Below are positions 47,868 through 58,924 of a DNA stretch of 64,000 nt, piece by piece. The notes below the pieces were generated by a model. It had not been told where the DNA came from and did not search any database. It worked only from the letters and a program-made list of their open reading frames with translations. Origin of the DNA: Streptomyces sp. HUAS CB01 (GTDB taxonomy: Bacteria; Actinomycetota; Actinomycetes; Streptomycetales; Streptomycetaceae). Each line of letters begins with the position of its first letter. The stretch's first letter is position 1. Location of the stretch: positions 7,781,501 to 7,845,500 of the forward strand of contig NZ_CP129137.1 of NCBI RefSeq assembly GCF_030406905.1, in the 5' to 3' direction. A program made the translations under genes and the position numbers.

Positions 47868-47880
47868 GGGATTGTCCCTA

Positions 47881-49003
47881 GTGTCCTGAGTCGGAGATTT
47901 GTCGTTGGTCTGGTGTGAGTTGTCCTGGACCGAAGATTCCGCCGGTTGTGCTGACTGATGCCGAGCGGGAGATGGTGCAGTCGTGGGTGCGTCGTCGTTC
48001 GAGTGCCCAGTCGTTGGCGTTGCGTTCGCGGATTGTGTTGGAGTGTGCCGAAGGGCATGCGATCGCGGAAGTCGCCCGGCGGTTACGGATCACCACGGAC
48101 ATGGTCCGCACCTGGCGGCGGCGCTTCCTCGAGCGCCGGCTGGACGGTCTGTGCGACGAACCGCGACCGGGTGTGCTACGCAAGATCACCGACGCTGATG
48201 TCGAGCGGGTGATCGTCAAGACACTCGAGGAGACACCGAAGAATGCCACTCACTGGTCGACCCGGTCCATGGCCGCGTCCACCGGTATGTCGCAGTCGGC
48301 GATCTCCCGGATCTGGCGGGCATTCGGACTCCAGCCGCACCGGGCCGAGACGTTCAAGCTGTCCAAGGACCCGCTGTTCGTGGACAAGGTCCGCGACGTG
48401 GTGGGGCTGTATCTCGATCCGCCGGAGCGGGCACTGGTCCTGTGCGTGGACGAGAAGTCCCAGATCCAGGCCTTGGACCGCTCCCAGCCGGTTCTGCCGA
48501 TGATGCCCGGGGTGCCTGAGCGCCGCAGCCGCGACTACGTGCGTGCGGGCACCACCACACTCTTCGCCGCCCTGGACACGGCAACGGGCAAGGTCATTGG
48601 CTCACTGCACCGCCGGCACCGGGCAACGGAGTTCAAGAAGTTCCTGATCAAGCTCGACCGCGAGGTGCCCCGCGAGCTCGACGTGCACCTGATCCTGGAC
48701 AACTACGTCACCCACAAGGTGCCGGCCGTCAAGAAGTGGCTGGCCGCCCATCCGCGCTTCCACCTGCACTTCACACCGACCGGATCCTCGTGGCTGAACC
48801 TGGTGGAGCGGTGGTTCGCCGAACTCACCACCAAAAAACTCCGCCGAGGCGTCCACCGCTCCGTCCAAGCCCTCGAACGCGACATCCGCACCTGGCTCGC
48901 CGACCGGAACACCAACCCACGGCCCTTCACCTGGACCAAAACAGCCGACGAAATCCTCGACAAAGTCGCAACATACTGCCGAAGAATCTCCGACTCAGGA
49001 CAC
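47881..49003 (+). mobile_element. IS630-family insertion sequence, intact
   Basis: The element is bounded by near-perfect terminal inverted repeats starting GTGTCCTGAGTCGGAGATT (left) and its complement (right). It is flanked on both sides by the dinucleotide TA (47879-47880 and 49004-49005), the target duplication of IS630/mariner elements. It carries one complete transposase gene. Identical ends and an uninterrupted gene suggest recent insertion. Confidence 0.93.
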
Positions 49004-49006
49004 TAG
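47915..49006 (+). CDS. IS630-family transposase
   Basis: A 363-residue DDE transposase. An N-terminal helix-turn-helix (residues 14-75) is followed by a Trp-rich linker. The catalytic domain has the motifs VLCVDEKSQIQAL, LILDNYVTHK and NLVERWFAEL that supply the D, D and E residues. The stop codon TAG lies across the target-site TA at the right end, so the gene extends exactly to the edge of the element. Intact, likely active. Confidence 0.95.
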   Translation: MSCPGPKIPPVVLTDAEREMVQSWVRRRSSAQSLALRSRIVLECAEGHAIAEVARRLRITTDMVRTWRRRFLERRLDGLCDEPRPGVLRKITDADVERVIVKTLEETPKNATHWSTRSMAASTGMSQSAISRIWRAFGLQPHRAETFKLSKDPLFVDKVRDVVGLYLDPPERALVLCVDEKSQIQALDRSQPVLPMMPGVPERRSRDYVRAGTTTLFAALDTATGKVIGSLHRRHRATEFKKFLIKLDREVPRELDVHLILDNYVTHKVPAVKKWLAAHPRFHLHFTPTGSSWLNLVERWFAELTTKKLRRGVHRSVQALERDIRTWLADRNTNPRPFTWTKTADEILDKVATYCRRISDSGH

Positions 49007-49275
49007 GGGGATCTTGCGTGCCGGTGGCATCAGCCATCGCCATTGCCGTCGCTTTGGGTGGGCACGCACGCAGATCCAAGCCCGCGAGGTCTCACCGTCG
49101 AACCATGCGCGAGGTCGAAGAGGCCGTGGCAGTTGCGGCGTTCACGGGCACACGACGGACGAGCCCATGGTGCCGGGGCGCATGGTGTGGACGTGGGCGC
49201 ACTTTCGGACACGGGGGCGCACAACACCCTGGGACGGATCTGGCCACTGCGAGGTCCGGTGCACGGAAAAATTCG

Positions 49276-49293: not shown

Positions 49294-49368
49294 GGGAGGT
49301 GGACCCACATACGGAATGTTGCGCTTCTAAGTGTCCAGAACCGTTCCGGCCAGATCGAATTATGCCCC

Positions 49369-49397
49369 TTACCGTTGCGTGTGAGCCTCAATAGACT
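49369..49397 (+). promoter_or_regulatory. Candidate promoter of the RiPP operon
   Basis: TTACCG (49369-49374) and TAGACT (49392-49397) are separated by 17 bases, a fair match to the principal sigma factor consensus. It would give a leader of about 57 bases before the precursor ATG. Confidence 0.35.
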
Positions 49398-49460: not shown

Positions 49461-49589
49461 ATGGGCGAGTCAACCACCCACGAGCAGACCATCATCGAGG
49501 ACATCGAGTCCCTCGACAGCCTCGAGGTGCTGGAGGCCGAGGACCTCGACGAAGGCGTGGCGTTCCACGCCTTCCGCTTCCGCAACTGA
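49461..49589 (+). CDS. RiPP precursor peptide, 42 residues
   Basis: A very short gene with an ideal ribosome site (GGAGG, 6 bases before the ATG). The product has an acidic helical leader rich in Glu, Asp, Ile and Leu (for example IIEDIESLDSLEVLEAEDLDEG, cited as residues 11-32) and a sharply different tail of aromatic and basic residues, VAFHAFRFRN (33-42). The Gly before the tail is a plausible cleavage point. It heads an operon of modifying enzymes and an exporter, so it is almost certainly the substrate. Two Arg, one His, three Phe and a terminal Asn are the residues available for modification. No known RiPP class fits. Confidence 0.85.
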   Translation: MGESTTHEQTIIEDIESLDSLEVLEAEDLDEGVAFHAFRFRN

Positions 49590-49674
49590 TTGCACTGCGC
49601 CGGCTCCGGAGCTGCACTCAGCCCGGGGCCGGCGACCCCCGCCGCCCGCCCTTGTGAAAGGCTCCGCATTTCCG

Positions 49675-51177
49675 GTGAGAACCTACCTTCAACTGCTCGG
49701 CCACAGGCGGTTCGCGGCACTCTGTTTCGGGCAGGCGGTTTCGCTGCTCGGAGACGCGCTTTTCCCGATAGTCGTCGTGGTTTCCGCGGCGCAGGCGGGA
49801 ACTCCGGCGGAAACGATCGGTGCGGCGTTCGCGGCGCGGTTCCTCGCCCTGGGCGGCGTGGTGCTGTTCAGCGGTGCCGTGCTGGACCGGATCAGCCCGG
49901 TCGTCGCGGCGGTCTGCGCGGACGGCACCCGGGTCGCGGCGCTGGTGGCCCTTGCGGTGTTCTGGGACGGCAACCTGGATCCGCTGGTGCTGGTCGTGGC
50001 GGTGGTCATCGGACTCTGTGAGGCGGTCAGCGAACCGGCGCTGCTCGTCATCGCGCCCCGAATCCTTCCCCGCGGTCCTGAATCCGGTCCCCGCCCGGCG
50101 GAATCGGACGGCGGGACGGCGCCGCACGCCGACGCGGTACCGGACGGCGGGGCCGGCTCGGACGCCGACGAGGAGCGTGTCACCGCCGCCTACGGCCTCC
50201 TCGAAGGCATGCGCAACCTGTCCGGCATCTTCGGCCCCACTCTCGCTGCGGGCCTCGTCGCCGTGTTCAGCCCGTCGGCGGGTGCCTTCGCCGCGGCGGT
50301 GGCCTTCGGGCTCTCGGCAGCCGCCACCCGCTGGGCCGGCGGCCGATTCGCGGCCGCTGGCCGGGACGACACCGCCGGGGAAGCACCCGCGACGGGCGCG
50401 GGCTCGGACACCGCCGGGGAAGCACCCGCGCAGGAGACGGGCCGGGAAGCGGACGGGGAGGGCGGTGCGGACGCAGGGCAGGAGTCGCTGCTGAGGTCCG
50501 CACTCGGCGGACTGGCCGTGCTCTGGCGGATCCGCTGGCTCCGACGGGTCCAGCTGCTGGCCGTGGTCCATGTGCTGTTCGCGGTCGGCCCCTGGATGGT
50601 CGCCCTGCCCGTCCTCGTCATCGAACGGCAGCACACCGCCACCGTCTACGCCCTGGTACTCGGCTCGTTCGCGGCCGGCACGGTCGCCGGTGCCTTCCTC
50701 GGCGGCCGGATCCGCGGGCGCCACCGCGGCCTTGTCTCGCTGGCGCTGCTCGCCCTGTTCGGGCTGACCGCCCTGAGCCCGGTCCTGACCGGCTCGGTCC
50801 CTGTGCTCATGGCCGCGTTCCTGGTCGGCGGAGTCGGCCAGCAGGCCTTCGACGTGGTGAAGATGGCCGGGCTGCGCCGGGAGGTGCCCGAGCGGTTGCA
50901 CGGCCGGGCGTTCTCCGCGGACTTCTTCTTCTCCTTCGCCTCGCTGCCCCTGGGCCAGCTGCTCGGGGCCGTGCTGCTGCGGTTCACGGAGGCCGAGGCG
51001 ATCATGCTGTGGGCCGGCGGACTGGTCATCGCCACCACGGTCCTGGCCATGGCGGGCAAGGACGTCCGGGAGTTCCGCTCGGGGCAGCCCCCGGCACCGG
51101 ACGACGGGGTACCGGAGCAGCGGGAGCCCTGGACGGGCAGCCCCGCGGAACAGGACGAGAATGCCGGGACACGTTGA
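49675..51177 (+). CDS. MFS exporter of the RiPP operon
   Basis: A 500-residue major-facilitator transporter with about 12 membrane helices. It belongs to the multidrug/peptide exporter branch (N-terminal RRFAALCFGQAVSLLGDALF, as in MFS_3 members). The central loop (about 140-275) carries an unusual acidic Gly/Ala/Glu-rich insert with an internal duplication (DTAGEAPA twice). It likely exports the finished peptide and gives self-protection. The GTG at 49675 is used; GTG 49654 is in phase. Its end overlaps the next gene by 17 bases. Confidence 0.87.
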   Translation: MRTYLQLLGHRRFAALCFGQAVSLLGDALFPIVVVVSAAQAGTPAETIGAAFAARFLALGGVVLFSGAVLDRISPVVAAVCADGTRVAALVALAVFWDGNLDPLVLVVAVVIGLCEAVSEPALLVIAPRILPRGPESGPRPAESDGGTAPHADAVPDGGAGSDADEERVTAAYGLLEGMRNLSGIFGPTLAAGLVAVFSPSAGAFAAAVAFGLSAAATRWAGGRFAAAGRDDTAGEAPATGAGSDTAGEAPAQETGREADGEGGADAGQESLLRSALGGLAVLWRIRWLRRVQLLAVVHVLFAVGPWMVALPVLVIERQHTATVYALVLGSFAAGTVAGAFLGGRIRGRHRGLVSLALLALFGLTALSPVLTGSVPVLMAAFLVGGVGQQAFDVVKMAGLRREVPERLHGRAFSADFFFSFASLPLGQLLGAVLLRFTEAEAIMLWAGGLVIATTVLAMAGKDVREFRSGQPPAPDDGVPEQREPWTGSPAEQDENAGTR

Positions 51178-52399
51178 CCTGTTCGAGGAGCACGGCGAAG
51201 TGGCGGCCCTCTGGCCGCAGGGCGGCTACCGGGACCGCACCGTGGTCTGCTTCGACCGCCACCTCGACCTCAAGCCCCTCGCACCGGGCGGCGAGGAGGC
51301 GCTGCGGTGCGCCGCCACCCTCGGCGAGGACCCGGCCGCACACCTGCGCCGGCTTCCGGTGCGTGGTGTACCCGGCGCCTTCGGCCTCGACGACTTCTGG
51401 TCCGCGGCCGCCCTGGCGGGCGGTCTCACTTCCCTGGTGTGGGTGCCCAGTTGGGGCTCCCATCCGCAATGGCGGGCGACCGCGCTGGACTCCGTCTCCC
51501 TGATCTCCACCGGGGGCGTGACGCCCGACCCGCGGGTCAGCGGCTGCTGCCTGACCGTCCGGCTGTGCGGGGTGAGCCTGGCGATCGTCCCGCCCGACCT
51601 GCTGGCCCGCCATCTCGCCGTGCACGTGTCCGGCGAGGTGGTGGCCGACATCGACCTGGACTGGCTGATGGACGAGCACGGGCGGCCCGACCACACGGTC
51701 GACGAGCTGGCGGCTCTGGTCGCGCTCTGCGGCGGCGAGTTGTCGGCGATGACCTGGTCGACCCGCTCGGGCTTCCTGCCGGGGGAGTTCCGGCAAGTCG
51801 GCACCGACGTCGCCGCCCGGCTCGGGCTGCGGGCCCGCACTTCCTCGTTCCTGCCGGCCACGCCCTGGCCCGAGGACCTGCTGCTGAGCGTGCACCGCGG
51901 CGCCCCGCTGCCCCAGGGCGAGGAGGACGGCGGGGTGACCGTCGCCCTGCGCGGCCTGGCACTGGCCACCACCGACCCGGCGCAGGCCGAGGAGTGCCAC
52001 CGCCGGGCTGCGGCGGCCGGGTACCGGTCGAGCTGGCTGGCGTACCGCATCGGCATCGCGCACTACGCCCGGGGCGGCCACCGCACTGCCCGGGAATGGC
52101 TGCGCGAGGCGGTCGCCGTCGACGGCCGCGACACCCTGGCCATGCACGCGCGGATCATGTCCGCGCGGGCCACCGCGCGGCTGGACGGCCCGGACCGGGC
52201 TTTCGCGGAACTCCGCGCCCTGGCCGGGGAACTCCCGCTGCGGTCCGGGGTCTGGCGGACGCTGCGGGTCCTGGCCCGCAGCTGCGGCGACACCGAGGCG
52301 GCGGCCGAGGCCGACGCCCGGCTGGCCCTGCTCGACCGGCTCACCGAGCCCGCCGTGGCCACGGCGGGGACCGGGCCCGACGACGGGGGGCGGGAGTGA
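51161..52399 (+). CDS. UPF0489/peptide-arginase-like protein with TPR-like C-terminus
   Basis: A 412-residue protein. The N-terminal 190 residues have the signature of UPF0489 and of peptide arginases such as OspR: EEHGEVAALW (His11), the DxHxD metal motif FDRHLDL (D32, H34, D36) and DIDLD (D163, D165, D167). These are the manganese ligands of the arginase fold. Characterised members convert arginine in a precursor peptide to ornithine. Residues 245-400 are paired helices resembling TPRs, which could bind the leader. The precursor tail contains two Arg, so this reaction is plausible here. Translationally overlapped with both neighbours. Confidence 0.82.
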   Translation: MPGHVDLFEEHGEVAALWPQGGYRDRTVVCFDRHLDLKPLAPGGEEALRCAATLGEDPAAHLRRLPVRGVPGAFGLDDFWSAAALAGGLTSLVWVPSWGSHPQWRATALDSVSLISTGGVTPDPRVSGCCLTVRLCGVSLAIVPPDLLARHLAVHVSGEVVADIDLDWLMDEHGRPDHTVDELAALVALCGGELSAMTWSTRSGFLPGEFRQVGTDVAARLGLRARTSSFLPATPWPEDLLLSVHRGAPLPQGEEDGGVTVALRGLALATTDPAQAEECHRRAAAAGYRSSWLAYRIGIAHYARGGHRTAREWLREAVAVDGRDTLAMHARIMSARATARLDGPDRAFAELRALAGELPLRSGVWRTLRVLARSCGDTEAAAEADARLALLDRLTEPAVATAGTGPDDGGRE

Positions 52400-54300
52400 G
52401 CCCCGGTGCGGCCACGGACGTCCTGCTGGTGATGCCGCCGGTCAGCGAGGCCGTGCAGTTCCCCTACCTGGCGCTGCCCCAGCTCGCCGCGGCCTGGACC
52501 GAGCGCGGCCACCGGGTGGTCTGCTGCGACCTGAACCTGGAGTACCGGACGGCCGTGCTGCGGCGCCACGGCGCCCCGGAGCGGGACGGGGACCGGGCTG
52601 CCACGACAACCGGTGGGGCCTTCGCGAAGGACGCCTTCCGCCGCATCAGCGAGCGCTACCGGCAGGGCCACGGGCAGCGGCTGCTGGATCGTTCCCGGGA
52701 CCGCAGCTCGGGCTTCGACCAGGAGGTCGCGATCCGCGCCGTCGTGCGGTACGTCACCCAGCAGGCCACCGCGGACGGCTGGATGCTGCCCGGACCGTTC
52801 CCGCTGTCCCGGCTGGACGATCTCGTCGCGGACGGGCGGTCCGGCTGGTCGGCCGAGTGGGCGGCGCAGCGGCTGACCGAGCTGCTGGCCCTGCACCGAC
52901 CGCGACTGCTCGGATTCTCCGTACCGTTCTTCAGCCAGCTGGTGCCCACCCTGGCGCTGTGCGGACTGCTCAAGGAGCAGCGGCCGGACCTGCGGATCAT
53001 GCTGGGCGGGCCGACCGTGCAGATGTGGGCGGCCGCACTGCGCCGCCGGGTGGCCGCGGCCCGGGCCGTCGACCACTGGTGCCTGGGCCACGGCGAGGAC
53101 TACCTCGGGCGGATCCTCGACGGCGCGTCGCCGGAGGCCGAGCGGACGGCCGAGCGCGCCGGGCTGGCCGACGGGTTCGTCCTCAACGAGCAGGCCATGC
53201 CCGACTTCGGGCAGTTCGACTTCGCCGACTACAGCAACCAGGCCCACCAGTTCCCCTACCGGCTGACCGTCGGCTGCTTCTGGGGCAGGTGCACCTTCTG
53301 CTCCTACGGCAACCGCTACCACGACGCACGGGCGTTCCAGCAGGTGTCCCCCGCGGTCGCGGCCGGGCACCTGGTCGAACTGGCGGCCCGGCTGGGCATC
53401 ACCGATGTGGCGGTCACCGACGAGAACACCGGGCTGCGGCACCTGCTGCGGGTGATGCGCGCGGTCCGTGCGCGCGGCGCCCCGCTGACCTTCCGCGTCC
53501 GGGCCCGGCTGGAACCGGAGCTGGCCGACCCGGAGTTCTGCGCGGAGCTGTACGCCCTGGGGTGCGTGCAGATGTCGGCCGGGTACGAGACGGACGCGCA
53601 GCCCGTCCTGGACGCGTTGAACAAGGGCCAGGACGCGCGGCACGCGGAGCGGGCGGTGGCGAACCTGACCGCCGCGGGGATCACCACCAACCTGTCCTTC
53701 ATGGACGGGTTCGCGCACCCCGACGCGGAGCGGGCGTACCGGGACACCGTGGCGGTGATCCAGCGGCATCCGGCGGACATGGGGCTGGACACCATGCAGT
53801 TGCTGGTCGCCGAGCCGGGCAGCCACCTGTGGGCGAGCAGGCGGGGCGCGGCGGACGACCCGCACGCGGACGCGGATCTGGTCACCAACGAAGGGCTGGC
53901 GTTCGCCGCCGGCCGGGTCGGCGGGGCGCTGCTGGACCCTCAAGGCACGGAGGAGGCCAGGCAGCGGCTGCTGCGGATGGCGGTCGAGGCCGTGCCGGAC
54001 GCGGAACGGACGAGCCGCCCCGACCTGGAGCAGCGCCCGCGGGTGGCAGCCGGGACGGGCCCGGATGCGGACGGCCTGGTGGCCGCGGGCACGCCGGTGC
54101 GCCCGCGCTTCGGGGTGGCGCTGGACACCGTACGAACGCAGTGGTTCCTGGCCGATCTGGCGTGGCCGCGGATGGCCGCGGTCCCACCGGGTGTGGCGCG
54201 CGCCGGGGACGGGCGGCTCACGGCGGACGGGCCTGACGGGCGCAGGTGGCTCTCGAGGATGGTGGAGAAACGCCTGCTGGAAGTGGAAGGGGGCGGCTGA
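52396..54300 (+). CDS. B12-binding radical SAM enzyme for peptide modification
   Basis: A 634-residue protein. Residues 6-230 form a cobalamin-binding Rossmann domain (DVLLVMPP at the start; IMLGGPTVQ later). Residues 285-500 are a radical SAM barrel. The cluster-binding cysteines are C294, C299 and C302, giving CX4CX2C instead of the usual CX3CX2C (VGCFWGRCTFCSYGN). B12-dependent radical SAM enzymes in RiPP operons usually methylate unactivated carbons, but some make cross-links. The GTG start overlaps the stop of the arginase-like gene. The C-terminal 130 residues are a family-specific extension. Substrate is inferred to be the 42-residue precursor. Confidence 0.88.
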   Translation: MSPGAATDVLLVMPPVSEAVQFPYLALPQLAAAWTERGHRVVCCDLNLEYRTAVLRRHGAPERDGDRAATTTGGAFAKDAFRRISERYRQGHGQRLLDRSRDRSSGFDQEVAIRAVVRYVTQQATADGWMLPGPFPLSRLDDLVADGRSGWSAEWAAQRLTELLALHRPRLLGFSVPFFSQLVPTLALCGLLKEQRPDLRIMLGGPTVQMWAAALRRRVAAARAVDHWCLGHGEDYLGRILDGASPEAERTAERAGLADGFVLNEQAMPDFGQFDFADYSNQAHQFPYRLTVGCFWGRCTFCSYGNRYHDARAFQQVSPAVAAGHLVELAARLGITDVAVTDENTGLRHLLRVMRAVRARGAPLTFRVRARLEPELADPEFCAELYALGCVQMSAGYETDAQPVLDALNKGQDARHAERAVANLTAAGITTNLSFMDGFAHPDAERAYRDTVAVIQRHPADMGLDTMQLLVAEPGSHLWASRRGAADDPHADADLVTNEGLAFAAGRVGGALLDPQGTEEARQRLLRMAVEAVPDAERTSRPDLEQRPRVAAGTGPDADGLVAAGTPVRPRFGVALDTVRTQWFLADLAWPRMAAVPPGVARAGDGRLTADGPDGRRWLSRMVEKRLLEVEGGG

Positions 54301-55307
54301 TGGAACGAGTGGCGCGGCGGGCACGGGAGGAGCGGGGGGAGGGGAAGGGGGAGGACTCCGGGCGGCTCGGTCTCGGGCTGGGCATGGACCTGGTCTGGGG
54401 CGAGCGCATCGGGTTCGAGAAGACCGGCGAGGGACGGCCCACCGACCGGGTCGCGGCCTTCCTCCAACGGCACGCGCAGGACTACGACTACATGTTCGTG
54501 GCGTTCCAGCCGATCGACTACGGCCCACTGGAGCCGGAACGCTACTTCCCCGCCTACGACCGGCTGTTCGAGCTGTTCGGGCCGGGACGGGCGCGGGCCT
54601 TCCACCACACCATGCTCAACACCGGCAGTCCGGAGGAGTACGAGAAGGAAGCGGTGGCGGAGTTCACCAACGCGCTGATCGAACGGTACGGCTTCCGGTG
54701 GGTGATCGAGGACCTGGGCATCTGGTCGCTGGGAGGCCGGAGCCTGCCCTATCCGATGCCTCCGGTGCTGACGACGGAAGGGCTGCGGCGCTGTGTCGGG
54801 CACGTCGGCGAGTGGGTGCGCCGGCTGGATGCGCCGCTGTCGGTGGAGTTCCCCGGATTCACCGAGGGCGGCAGTTTCCTCGTCGGCACCCTGGACGCGT
54901 TCGCGTTCTTCGACACGGTGATCCGGGAGACCGGCGCGCTGGCCACCCTCGACGTCGGGCACGTCCTGGCCTACCAGTGGCTGATGGGCCGCACCGGGAA
55001 GCGGATGTTCGAGGGTGTGGAGGCGCTGCCGCTGGACCGCTGCCACGAGGTGCACCTGTCGGGCTGCCAGATCGTCGAGGGGCGGTTCCGGGACCTGCAC
55101 CACGGCGTGCTGCTCGACGAGCAACTGGCCCTGCTGGAACACCTGCTGCCGATGATGCCCCGGCTGACCGGGGTGACGTACGAGGACCCGAACTTCGACG
55201 CGGCGGGGCGGCTCGTGCCGAAGTCCCGGCCCAACGCGGAGCGGCTGTTCGCGATCGTCCGCGCGTGGAAGGAGGAAGCGGATGCCGGAGCCCGACGGGT
55301 CGGCTGA
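54300..55307 (+). CDS. DUF692/MNIO multinuclear iron enzyme
   Basis: A 335-residue TIM-barrel protein of the DUF692 family, which uses two or three iron ions to oxidise peptide residues (MbnB, TglH, ChrH, ApyH). Candidate metal ligands are visible in order: H102/H103 (FHHTMLNTGS), E137 (VIEDLG), E183 (SVEFPG), D218 and H221 (TLDVGH), H252 (EVHLSG) and H267/H268 (LHHG). ATG 54300 shares its A with the stop of the previous gene. The first 22 residues are charged and disordered. MNIO enzymes need a partner protein, probably the next gene. Reactions known for the family include oxazolone/thioamide formation and C-terminal Asp conversion; here there is no Cys in the precursor, so Asn, His or Phe are the possible targets. 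Confidence 0.88.
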   Translation: MERVARRAREERGEGKGEDSGRLGLGLGMDLVWGERIGFEKTGEGRPTDRVAAFLQRHAQDYDYMFVAFQPIDYGPLEPERYFPAYDRLFELFGPGRARAFHHTMLNTGSPEEYEKEAVAEFTNALIERYGFRWVIEDLGIWSLGGRSLPYPMPPVLTTEGLRRCVGHVGEWVRRLDAPLSVEFPGFTEGGSFLVGTLDAFAFFDTVIRETGALATLDVGHVLAYQWLMGRTGKRMFEGVEALPLDRCHEVHLSGCQIVEGRFRDLHHGVLLDEQLALLEHLLPMMPRLTGVTYEDPNFDAAGRLVPKSRPNAERLFAIVRAWKEEADAGARRVG

Positions 55308-56046
55308 GCACGACCGGATCCTGCGGGTGCTGGACCGGTTGCTGTACGACGAGGAGACGCGGAGCGCATTCGTCGAGCACGGCCCCCACCATCCCGCGCT
55401 CGGGCTGGACCCGGCGCTGGCCGCGGCGTTCGCCCGGGTCGACGTACGGGAACTGACCCTGGTCGGACGCAACATCCGCTCCGAGGTGGTGAGCGGGGGC
55501 ACCGGGACGGGCCCGGGGCTGGCCCGCGGCTTCGCACGGTCGCTGCGGGCGATCCGGGAGCGCACCGGACTCACACCGAACGAACTCGCCGAACGGTTCA
55601 CCGCATCGGTGGAGTTCCGCCATTTCCGGGACGTGCCGTTCTCGGCGGCCGGCCGCGGACGGCTCATGCCGGAGTGCTTCCACCGCTTCGTCGCCGCGTC
55701 CGCGGAGCCCCTGGCCGCAGTGGAACCGCTGGTGCACCACGAGGCGGCGGTGGGGGTTGCACAGGCGGTGGCCACCGGCGCGGAGGCGACATTCGACGTG
55801 GGGCTGGCGGGGTTCGCCGCGCACGGCGGTGTGCAGTGCGGGTTCCGGGAGTACGGGGAGGCAGCCGTGGAGTGGGGACTGGAGCCGACGCTGTACCTGG
55901 CGACACCGGGCCGCTGCATCATCGGGCGTGCCACCCGGCCCGTGTTCGAGGGGCTGGTGGCGGTCCTGGCGGGCCGGGACGGACCGTTGGCCCCCGCGAC
56001 CCGGGCCGCACTACGGGACCGGCTGGACCACTGGGGGCTGCGATGA
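55282..56046 (+). CDS. Probable partner protein of the MNIO enzyme
   Basis: A 254-residue soluble protein without a catalytic motif I recognise. Its N-terminal 60 residues (RILRVLDRLLYDEETRSAFV, then ALGLDPALAAAFARVDVREL) form short helices like the leader-binding helical segments of MNIO partner proteins. The rest may recruit the leader or bind the enzyme. Ribosome site GGAGGA precedes ATG 55282, which lies 26 bases inside the MNIO gene, so the two are made together. Partner function is an inference from position and size. Confidence 0.65.
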   Translation: MPEPDGSAEHDRILRVLDRLLYDEETRSAFVEHGPHHPALGLDPALAAAFARVDVRELTLVGRNIRSEVVSGGTGTGPGLARGFARSLRAIRERTGLTPNELAERFTASVEFRHFRDVPFSAAGRGRLMPECFHRFVAASAEPLAAVEPLVHHEAAVGVAQAVATGAEATFDVGLAGFAAHGGVQCGFREYGEAAVEWGLEPTLYLATPGRCIIGRATRPVFEGLVAVLAGRDGPLAPATRAALRDRLDHWGLR

Positions 56047-56903
56047 ACCCGGGCCTGCTGGAGACGGACGTGCTGGACGTGGCGGAGTTCCGGCGTGAGT
56101 GCTGGCGGCGCCGGCCGGTGGTGTGGCGGGGCCGCGGAGCGGACTTCCTGGCCCCCGCCCTCGACTGGGCACAGGTCGCCGAGCTGGAGGAGCGGCTCGC
56201 CGCGACGGGCCACGGGCAGGCGGCGGTGCACCGGAGCGACGACGGGCAGGTGCTCTTCGTCAACCAGGCCCAGCACGTGATGCCGGTGCTCCGTGCGGCG
56301 TGCACGGTGCTGGCGGACCGGTTCGGCTGGGCCGAGTGCACCGCCGACCTGTCGGTGACCCGGGGCCGCGGCGCGGGCATCGGCTGCCACTTCGACCACA
56401 GCGACAACTTCGTCGTGCAGCAGCAGGGGGCCAAGGACTGGCTGGTGGGGCTGCCCGCGCACACCTCCGAGGCGCGGCAGCGCAAACGGATGCTGGAGAC
56501 GAAGGGGTTCGTCCCCACGGGGCGGCTGCCGTCGGAACCGTTCCGGGTGCGGCTCGAGGCCGGCGACGTGCTGTACCTGCCGGTGTTCGCCCCGCACGAG
56601 GGGGTGGAGACACCGCCGGGGCCCGGCACGGGCGCGGAGCCCGGCTCGGTGAGCGTCTCGTTCTCGTGCAACGCCGAAAGCGCGCTCGGCCGGTATCTGC
56701 GGCCGTTGGTGCGCCGGCTGTCCGAGCAGCGGGAGTGGTGGGAGCCGCTGCCGACGGACGGGCCGGACACGGACCGGTTGGACCGGGCGCTGCTGCGGGC
56801 GCTGCGGGAGGTGCGGGAAGAGGGCGGGGACCACCGAGAGGGAGGGGACGGACATGCGGGTGAAGGATCTGAAGGCGGACCGGTCGGCGGCGGGGCTGCC
56901 TGA
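56043..56903 (+). CDS. JmjC/cupin-type Fe(II)/2-oxoglutarate peptide hydroxylase
   Basis: A 286-residue protein with the cupin/JmjC pattern of ribosomal oxygenases (ROXA/YcfD, MINA53). The iron ligands are H116 and D118 in CHFDHSDNF and H185 in FAPHEGVET; VQQQGAKDWLVGL is the 2-oxoglutarate/strand region that follows. Such enzymes hydroxylate Arg or His side chains in proteins, and the precursor tail offers both. The C-terminal 50 residues are acidic and Gly-rich. ATG 56043 overlaps the preceding stop (ATGA). Confidence 0.85.
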   Translation: MNPGLLETDVLDVAEFRRECWRRRPVVWRGRGADFLAPALDWAQVAELEERLAATGHGQAAVHRSDDGQVLFVNQAQHVMPVLRAACTVLADRFGWAECTADLSVTRGRGAGIGCHFDHSDNFVVQQQGAKDWLVGLPAHTSEARQRKRMLETKGFVPTGRLPSEPFRVRLEAGDVLYLPVFAPHEGVETPPGPGTGAEPGSVSVSFSCNAESALGRYLRPLVRRLSEQREWWEPLPTDGPDTDRLDRALLRALREVREEGGDHREGGDGHAGEGSEGGPVGGGAA

Positions 56904-57909
56904 CCTCTCGCTGATCGTGCTGGCCGAGGACGCGGCGGCGGTCGCGGCCAACGAGCAGCTCCACCGGGTGGTGGCCCGGCAGTACCTGGTGCGGGTGCTG
57001 CGGGCGGTGCAGCGGCTCGACGAGGGCCACCGGGCGGATCCGGCGCTGGCCCGGGTCCGCGGGCTCCTTGACGCGATGGACGTGGACGCGGCGCTGCTCT
57101 GGGCGCTGCGTCCGGAGGTGACGGGCTGGGTGTGGCGGGCCGAGAGCGGTGCGGTGGAGCCGGAGCCGCTGCTGCGGCTGCTGGCGCGGGCCCTGGCGTA
57201 CGATCCGGACGCCGCGCCGGCCTCGGTGCGGCTGGCGGCGGCCGACGGCCCGGCTCCTGTGGTCACCGGCGACGGCCCGGCGCGGGGGGACCTGCTGCTG
57301 GAGTGGGCATCGGAGGGCGACGAACCGGCGGTGCGGCTGGAGGCGGCCGACGCGGCGGCGTTCGCGGCCCGGCTGCAGGAGGCGGCGGATCTGCTGGGGC
57401 GGGAGTGGCCGGAGGGGCTGGCGATGGCGGCCCGCGACATCCGGGCCTTCGCGGCCCTGGGCGGGCACCGGGGACTGCGCCCGCTGAACTTCAGCGTGCA
57501 CGGGCTGCGCGGGCTGGTGCTGACGAGTGAGCGCCCGGCGTACATGCTCGCCCAGACACTCGTGCACGAGGGCACCCATCAGCGGTTCAGCGGGGTGCTG
57601 GACTGTGTGGCGCTGGTGCGCAACCCGCGGGCCACGCACCATTCGCCGTTCGTCGACGCGGAACGGCCGCTCGGGCACATCTTGCACGGCATCCTGTCGT
57701 TCATCAACGACGCCTGGGCGGCGGGGAGGCACCAGCAGGTGGAGGAGGACCCGGTCGAACGGGACCGGCTGGAGCGTTACCGCCAGGAGAAGGCCGGACA
57801 GCTGCTGGCGGCGGAGAAGAACCTGCTGGAGGTGGCGGACCCGACACCCGCCGGGGCCCAGCTGCTGGCCGGCTGCCGGGCCGCGATCGCCCGGCTGACC
57901 GGTGGCTGA
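56854..57909 (+). CDS. HExxH-motif putative peptide-modification protein
   Basis: A 351-residue protein of the family typified by an HExxH motif in RiPP operons. The motif is HEGTH (residues 238-242), in a helix TLVHEGTHQ, followed by conserved FVDAERPLGHILHGILSFINDAW. The first 220 residues are largely helical. The family's chemistry is unknown; it may be a protease or a metal-dependent modifying enzyme. ATG 56854 has GGGAGGGG upstream and lies 50 bases inside the JmjC gene. Confidence 0.83.
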   Translation: MRVKDLKADRSAAGLPDLSLIVLAEDAAAVAANEQLHRVVARQYLVRVLRAVQRLDEGHRADPALARVRGLLDAMDVDAALLWALRPEVTGWVWRAESGAVEPEPLLRLLARALAYDPDAAPASVRLAAADGPAPVVTGDGPARGDLLLEWASEGDEPAVRLEAADAAAFAARLQEAADLLGREWPEGLAMAARDIRAFAALGGHRGLRPLNFSVHGLRGLVLTSERPAYMLAQTLVHEGTHQRFSGVLDCVALVRNPRATHHSPFVDAERPLGHILHGILSFINDAWAAGRHQQVEEDPVERDRLERYRQEKAGQLLAAEKNLLEVADPTPAGAQLLAGCRAAIARLTGG

Positions 57910-58924
57910 CGGGCTGTCGGCGGCGCTGGCCGACGCGGCCCAGGAGCTGGGTCCGGCAGCATCGCTGTCGCGGCGGGAGCAGCCCGACGGGCTGGTGCGG
58001 GTCCATGTCCGGCTCGGCCCCGCGGCACACGGGCACACCCCGCAGTGGGGCGTGGCCGCCTACGACACGGCTTTCGTGCTGGCGGAACTCCCCCGGGGAG
58101 TGTGCCGGTTGCTGGACGACCGGGAGCTGCTGGCACGCCGGACACCGGTCGGGGACGCACCGCTGGTGGGGCCGGCGGTGCTGTCACCGGCGGCGGCGGG
58201 GGTGTTCGTGCACGAGTGCTTCGGGCACACCAGCGAGGCGGACAACTACCTGGCCGCGCTGTCCGGCGGGGCGGACCGCGGACTGGGCGACCGGTGGACC
58301 CCGGCCCCGCTGACGGTCCACGACCGGCCGGCGACCCGCCCGTACGCGGGCAGTTACCGGCGGGACGACGAGGGGACTCGCGCACGGACGGTCGCGCTGC
58401 TGACGGACGGGCGGTGGACGGGACTGCTGACCGACCGCGCGACACGCCACCTGAGCGGCGGCCGGAGCACGGGCCACGGGCGGGGCCCGGCGGGGGCGGT
58501 GCTGCCGCGGTGCAGTGTGCTGGAGGTCTCCCCGGGCACGCATCCGCCGGCGGAACTGCTGGAGCGGTCGGACGACGGCTGGCTGCTGGGCAGCCCGGTC
58601 GGCGGCTGGTCGGTACGCGGACTGCTGGTGCTGGAACTGCTCTGGGTACGCCGGATCCGGCGAGGACGGCTCACCGACGAGATCCGCGGCCCGGCCGTGG
58701 TGTGCGCACGGAAGTCGGCACTCGCCGCACAGGTCGTGGCGGTGGGCGACGACCCCGTCGTGCTCAGCTCGCCGTACACCTGCGTCAAGGAGGGACACGA
58801 GGTCGGGTCGACCCTGATCAGCCCGTCGCTGCTGCTCCAGCAGTGCGTGCTGCGCCCGCTCGACAGGGTCGTGCGGGCGGACCGGGCGGCACGTACGCCC
58901 GCGGTCCCGGCACGGGGAACCTGA
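57902..58924 (+). CDS. TldD/PmbA-like zinc metalloprotease
   Basis: A 340-residue protein with the TldD zinc motif HExxxH: H104, E105, H109 (VFVHECFGHTSEAD). It is shorter than normal TldD (about 450-480 residues) and has no PmbA/TldE partner in the operon. A C-terminal region CVKEGHEVGSTLISPS resembles the TldD region that supplies the third, cysteine, ligand. TldD/E complexes remove leader peptides and degrade unfolded peptides, for example in microcin B17 maturation; this protein probably trims the leader. GTG 57902 overlaps the previous gene by 8 bases. Last gene of the operon. Confidence 0.83.
   Translation: MADGLSAALADAAQELGPAASLSRREQPDGLVRVHVRLGPAAHGHTPQWGVAAYDTAFVLAELPRGVCRLLDDRELLARRTPVGDAPLVGPAVLSPAAAGVFVHECFGHTSEADNYLAALSGGADRGLGDRWTPAPLTVHDRPATRPYAGSYRRDDEGTRARTVALLTDGRWTGLLTDRATRHLSGGRSTGHGRGPAGAVLPRCSVLEVSPGTHPPAELLERSDDGWLLGSPVGGWSVRGLLVLELLWVRRIRRGRLTDEIRGPAVVCARKSALAAQVVAVGDDPVVLSSPYTCVKEGHEVGSTLISPSLLLQQCVLRPLDRVVRADRAARTPAVPARGT

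What the first reader, a model, noticed from the sequence alone, without database searches (positions are those of the whole stretch)
49461..58924. Undescribed RiPP operon: precursor plus arginase-like, B12-radical SAM, MNIO, JmjC, HExxH and TldD-like enzymes
Seen directly: nine genes on one strand, from the third onward each overlapping the next, beginning with a 42-residue peptide gene with a perfect ribosome site and including six enzymes whose motifs are readable. Known families: UPF0489/peptide arginase, B12-binding radical SAM, DUF692/MNIO, JmjC ribosomal-oxygenase type, HExxH RiPP protein and TldD. Each occurs in RiPP operons, but I do not recognise this combination in a described class. 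Inference: one short peptide is converted by several oxidative and hydrolytic steps, trimmed and exported.
Basis: partly seen in the sequence, partly recalled or inferred. Interest (0 to 1): 0.96.

Follow-up and report, generated by a model that had tools for sequence, protein, structure and literature searches.

The report
Streptomyces biphenomycin antibiotic gene cluster
This genome carries nine genes that match, gene for gene and in the same order, the published gene set for the biphenomycin antibiotics, so the strain is predicted to make a biphenomycin; the operon is real, but it is a further member of a pathway described in 2025 and not a new class.

The parts
49344..49397 (+). putative promoter region: box TTCCGGCCA 117 bases before bipA and -10-like TAGACT 69 bases before it
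   Evidence: similar box and hexamer in 6 of 8 sequences compared (window, L002-L006), absent in L007 and L008; pattern fitted by eye
49461..49589 (+). bipA, 42-residue precursor ending FHAFRF-RN; predicted core FRF
   Evidence: 11 of 11 database relatives (one of them this very sequence) carry FHAFRF
49590..49653 (+). gap between bipA and bipB with a GC-rich hairpin, possibly an attenuator or 3' end protector (inference)
   Evidence: -34.1 kcal/mol, 6 of 200 shuffles as low
49654..51177 (+). bipB, MFS exporter (GTG start assumed)
   Evidence: MFS_1 1.4e-19
51161..52399 (+). bipC, peptide arginase domain plus TPR domain
52396..54300 (+). bipD, B12-binding radical SAM enzyme, predicted biaryl coupling
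   Evidence: Pfam; CFWGRCTFC at 294
54300..55307 (+). bipE, MNIO, predicted double ortho-hydroxylation of Phe
   Evidence: Pfam; nine ligand positions invariant in 23 sequences
55282..56046 (+). bipF, MNIO partner protein
56043..56903 (+). bipG, JmjC protein, predicted ornithine gamma-hydroxylase
   Evidence: JmjC_2 9.6e-13; HFD at 116
56854..57909 (+). bipH, aKG-HExxH protein, predicted beta-hydroxylase of the C-terminal ortho-tyrosine
   Evidence: TIGR04267 1.5e-21; HEGTH at 238
57902..58924 (+). bipI, TldD-type protease, predicted to remove the leader and likely the RN tail
   Evidence: PmbA_TldD_3rd 6.3e-27; HECFGH at 104

Best explanation
The operon matches the published nine-gene biphenomycin cluster bipA-bipI, and its products are predicted to turn the FRF core of one ribosomal peptide into a biphenomycin-type macrocyclic antibiotic. 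By analogy with the characterised homologues (nothing was assayed here): MNIO BipE with partner BipF would hydroxylate both Phe of FRF to ortho-tyrosine; arginase BipC would turn the Arg between them into ornithine; B12-radical SAM enzyme BipD would join the two rings by a C-C bond; JmjC protein BipG would hydroxylate the ornithine at the gamma carbon; HExxH protein BipH would hydroxylate the C-terminal ortho-tyrosine at the beta carbon; TldD-type BipI would cut off the leader and likely the RN tail; BipB would export the product. With both hydroxylase genes present the expected product is biphenomycin A (C23H28N4O8, [M+H]+ about 489.20, worked out by hand), possibly with a C-type form ending Arg-Asn (about 759.34).
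For: Same nine genes and order as the producers' clusters and as S. griseorubiginosus DSM 40469. Precursor with FHAFRF at the C-terminus, invariant in 11 of 11 BipA relatives. Counterparts of all nine iron ligands predicted for PbsC (mapped by a constant offset of 5; PbsC itself was not in the alignment) and of all six Mn ligands predicted for PbsE. BipC N-terminal domain folds like peptide arginase OspR and its profile finds only OspR in the PDB, whole-sequence E 0.00096. Arginase in 14 of 15 FHAFRF loci and in none of the other 22. HExxH and TldD motifs intact.
Against: No product, transcript or activity was seen. The tail is RN, not RS. Whether BipI removes the tail is disputed: it did in PMC12707348, while its homologue PbsP did not in PMC12257519. 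I saw no assay of BipH in the text of PMC12707348 that I read, so its step rests on presence or absence of the gene. The BipF model has only a modest fold match and no significant Foldseek match. One FHAFRF locus, L032, shows no arginase match in the fetched DNA.
Confidence: 0.9

Rival explanations
1. The cluster makes a biphenomycin-like peptide that is not A, B or C, because the Arg-Asn tail is kept or a tailoring step acts differently.
For: Tail RN differs from the producers' RS; among the close loci the tails are ATA, KAVS, AA, RS, RS, KNIV, KNIV. PbsP did no C-terminal cutting.
Against: A tail that varies while FHAFRF stays fixed is what a discarded follower would show; BipI of two organisms cut both ends and tolerated different followers.
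Confidence: 0.3
2. The cluster is silent or damaged: a transposon upstream has cut it off from its regulation.
For: A DDE_3 transposase gene with perfect 24-bp inverted ends lies at 47876-49008, 452 bases before bipA.
Against: All nine frames are open. The box and -10-like site shared with five relatives lie between the transposon and bipA.
Confidence: 0.1
3. It is an undescribed RiPP class.
For: No library model names the cluster; the window's BipC and BipF hit no family above its cut-off.
Against: Gene-for-gene match to bipA-I / bpmA-I, and the FHAFRF motif named in PMC12257519.
Confidence: 0.03

Closest known systems
bip cluster of Streptomyces griseorubiginosus No. 43708 and S. filipinensis NRRL 3217 (bpm, PV659837); PMC12707348, PMC12257519
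   Same: nine genes A-I, same order; FRF core; both hydroxylase genes present
   Different: precursor 42 residues ending FRFRN, published Sg_BipA 41 residues ending FRFRS; in the named relative L006 the proteins are 60-85% identical
pbs cluster of Peribacillus simplex BE23 (PMC12257519)
   Same: FHAFRF precursor, B12-rSAM, MNIO, partner, arginase, Orn hydroxylase, protease, MFS
   Different: four precursors, no bipH homologue, other gene order
Peptide arginase OspR (PDB 8brp)
   Different: 15% identity; BipC carries an added TPR domain
MNIO/partner pair TglHI (PDB 8hci)
   Same: BipE is in the same Pfam family; BipF model closest to chain A, probably the partner, since chain D is the DUF692 subunit
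   Different: TglHI acts on a C-terminal Cys (table seen); BipEF is predicted to act on Phe

Membership tests
Biphenomycin (bip/bpm) cluster | Precursor with FHAFRF at or near its C-terminus | tested here: met
   FHAFRF-RN at 49461-49589
Biphenomycin (bip/bpm) cluster | Gene order A-I as in S. griseorubiginosus | tested here: met
   compared with published order and with L006
Biphenomycin (bip/bpm) cluster | MNIO with the metal ligands given for PbsC | tested here: met
   nine of nine positions invariant in 23 sequences, mapped by offset 5
Biphenomycin (bip/bpm) cluster | RRE-containing MNIO partner | tested here: inconclusive
Biphenomycin (bip/bpm) cluster | Arginase with TPR repeats and Mn motifs EEHxE, DxHxD, DIDLD | tested here: met
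   motifs, fold
Biphenomycin (bip/bpm) cluster | B12-binding radical SAM enzyme | tested here: met
   Radical_SAM 2.4e-8; B12-binding 1.1e-6, slightly under its cut-off; cysteine motif CX4CX2C
Biphenomycin (bip/bpm) cluster | JmjC, HExxH and TldD-type proteins | tested here: met
Biphenomycin (bip/bpm) cluster | Enzyme activities on this precursor | not testable with these tools
   needs biochemistry
Biphenomycin (bip/bpm) cluster | Strain makes a biphenomycin | not testable with these tools
   needs culture or heterologous expression with LC-MS

The most novel reading that the evidence does not exclude
The cluster makes an unreported biphenomycin C-type antibiotic that ends in Arg-Asn, and its relatives that lack bipH or bipG make further unreported congeners, one of them without the gamma-hydroxyl on ornithine, so evolution has already run the knock-outs needed to learn what each hydroxyl group does.
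Probability: 0.35. Interest if true: 0.4.

Novelty: new member of a known kind. Interest (0 to 1): 0.27.

Why it matters
Biphenomycins are potent antibiotics against Gram-positive bacteria, with an unknown mode of action and very low yields from the known producers. A further complete cluster with a different tail is another candidate producer and a source of enzyme variants. The family comparison offers two testable points: natural loci without bipH or bipG, and a tail that varies while FHAFRF does not. It also gives a limited negative result: within the fetched DNA (up to 10 kb either side of the MNIO gene) no non-bip gene travels with the cluster across the close loci, so no target-type self-resistance gene is visible there and the exporter is the only candidate.

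Tried and rejected
Rejected: an undescribed class (two papers describe it). Rejected: a link with the neighbouring genes (peroxidase, Fur, SpoIIE-type protein, DUF6461, DUF4328), because no close locus shares them. Looked for a dedicated resistance gene among flanking genes shared by the close loci; found none (simple gene caller, 80 aa or more). Foldseek with the whole BipC model listed TPR-type proteins among its 50 printed rows and no arginase; the arginase domain appeared with VIA-align and with the N-terminal profile. With the whole-length profile 8brp had only E 0.042. Foldseek with BipF gave nothing better than E 1.4. UPF0489 was not hit by the window's BipC but by 4 of 15 family members. 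The first precursor scan found 20 of 37 loci and missed L010, L014, L018, L027, L028, L029, L032 and L036, which were recovered with looser criteria or by reading tblastn hits. In nine loci (L017, L023, L025, L031, L033, L034, L035, L037, L038) none was found; L025, L035 and L038 are short pieces. only relocates the promoter pattern in the window and is no test of it. My note says CX4CX2C in 25 of 26 relatives and 12/1/7 precursors; recounted these are 27 of 28 and 15/1/12. Of the stated odds, the best explanation has 0.9, the tail rival 0.3 and the silent-cluster rival 0.1 (0.15 in the garbled first form).

Full report
WHAT IS THERE. The window holds nine open + strand genes at 49461-58924. 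A 42-residue peptide gene is followed after 64 nt by eight genes that overlap one another by 17, 4, 1, 26, 4, 50 and 8 nt. Pfam and NCBIfam give MFS, radical SAM with a B12-binding domain, MNIO, JmjC, HExxH beta-hydroxylase and TldD. The third and sixth genes hit no family above its cut-off and were examined by other means below.

WHAT IT IS. The order precursor, MFS, TPR/arginase, B12-rSAM, MNIO, partner, JmjC, HExxH, TldD is, gene for gene, that of bipA-bipI in Streptomyces griseorubiginosus No. 43708 and S. filipinensis NRRL 3217 (PMC12707348; main text parts 1-5 of 6 read; passages) and of bpmA-I (PMC12257519; abstract and outline, sections 8, 9, 19, 20, 21 and part 1 of 2 of section 22 read; one passage). 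These papers report, with homologous enzymes, ortho-hydroxylation of both Phe of FRF by the MNIO pair, Arg to Orn by the arginase, biaryl coupling by the rSAM, gamma-hydroxylation of Orn by the JmjC or cupin protein, and proteolysis by the TldD-type enzyme. The first mentions more than 1,000 similar pathways in public genomes. I could not check whether this strain is one of them, as supplementary files are not open to me.

THE ORGANISM. The genome has 8,098,788 bases in 6 contigs, with one match each for the MNIO and the precursor. Of 392 genomes of the genus drawn, this one included, 10 have an MNIO relative at E <= 1e-50, and 4 of these, this one included, are at 82% identity or more.

WHAT DIFFERS FROM THE PUBLISHED CLUSTERS. 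The tail is RN, not RS. In the window and the seven close loci it is RN, ATA, KAVS, AA, RS, RS, KNIV, KNIV while FHAFRF is unchanged, which fits a tail that is cut off. BipI removed both ends in one study, but its homologue PbsP left the C-terminus in the other, so an Arg-Asn form is possible. bipH is missing from L003, L007 and L008 and bipG from L004; up to E 10 the only trace is a chance-level match on the other strand in L003, E 5.8. Those strains would be expected to make B-type products, or one without the ornithine hydroxyl. This window has both genes, so biphenomycin A is the expected product. In the parts of PMC12707348 that I read there is no assay of BipH, so that step is the least secure.

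OTHER OBSERVATIONS. The radical SAM cysteine motif is CX4CX2C in the window and in 27 of 28 relatives with a BipD match (the exception, L021, gave a short frame); the usual spacing, recalled and not from a call, is CX3CX2C. Searching the two main texts for CX4C (and PMC12257519 for CXXXXC) found nothing. Folding of the 64 nt after bipA gives -32 to -50 kcal/mol in 8 of 8 sequences, with 0 to 6 of 200 shuffles as low in seven of them and 20 of 200 in L008. A box TT(T/C)C(C/T)GG(C/T)CA, with one base optional, at -110 to -118 and a -10-like hexamer at -61 to -69 before bipA occur in 6 of 8; the pattern was fitted by eye. Flanking genes are not shared between close loci, apart from L007/L008 and four weak pairs, so the conserved unit is the bip operon itself.

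VERDICT. Real, complete and largely read correctly, but a further member of a described antibiotic pathway. My paper searches did not show this particular locus in print: 'biphenomycin' (44 papers, 20 listed), 'ortho-tyrosine / RiPP / arginase / radical SAM' (17 papers with at least three of the terms, 14 listed), 'FHAFRF' (2 papers), 'biphenomycin' with 'biosynthetic gene cluster' since 2025 (14 papers, 11 listed); the supplements were not searched. Of three other papers I saw only passages: PMC12703449, PMC12636437, PMC12452194.

Noticed in passing
47876-49008: Insertion element with a DDE_3 transposase gene and perfect 24-bp inverted ends, 452 bases before bipA; one full-length copy in the assembly, plus a 221-base stretch at 69% identity elsewhere.
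   Followed up: partly
bipD, 52396-54300 (residue 294) and 27 of 28 relatives: Radical SAM cysteine motif spaced CX4CX2C instead of the usual (recalled) CX3CX2C throughout the BipD family.
   Followed up: partly
49590-49653 and the same place in L002-L008: GC-rich hairpin right after the precursor gene in 8 of 8 sequences compared, weakest against shuffles in L008; it might set the precursor-to-enzyme ratio.
   Followed up: partly
49344-49397: Shared upstream box and -10-like hexamer before bipA in 6 of 8 sequences, a possible binding site for a regulator encoded elsewhere.
   Followed up: partly
L004; L003, L007, L008: Streptomyces inusitatus lacks bipG; S. spinoverrucosus, Streptomyces sp. 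XM4193 and S. tardus lack bipH: natural gene-loss variants.
   Followed up: partly
L011:7681-7881, L012:7720-7920: Precursors of Thermoactinomycetaceae carry two FHAFRF cores in one peptide.
   Followed up: no
L014, L032: Myxobacterial loci (Nannocystis, Paraliomyxa) carry FHAFRF precursors with JmjC, HExxH and TldD genes; in L032 no arginase match was found in the fetched DNA.
   Followed up: no
L005: In Streptomyces sp. DHE7-1 four bip genes (B, F, H, I) are split over two frames, from assembly errors or decay.
   Followed up: no
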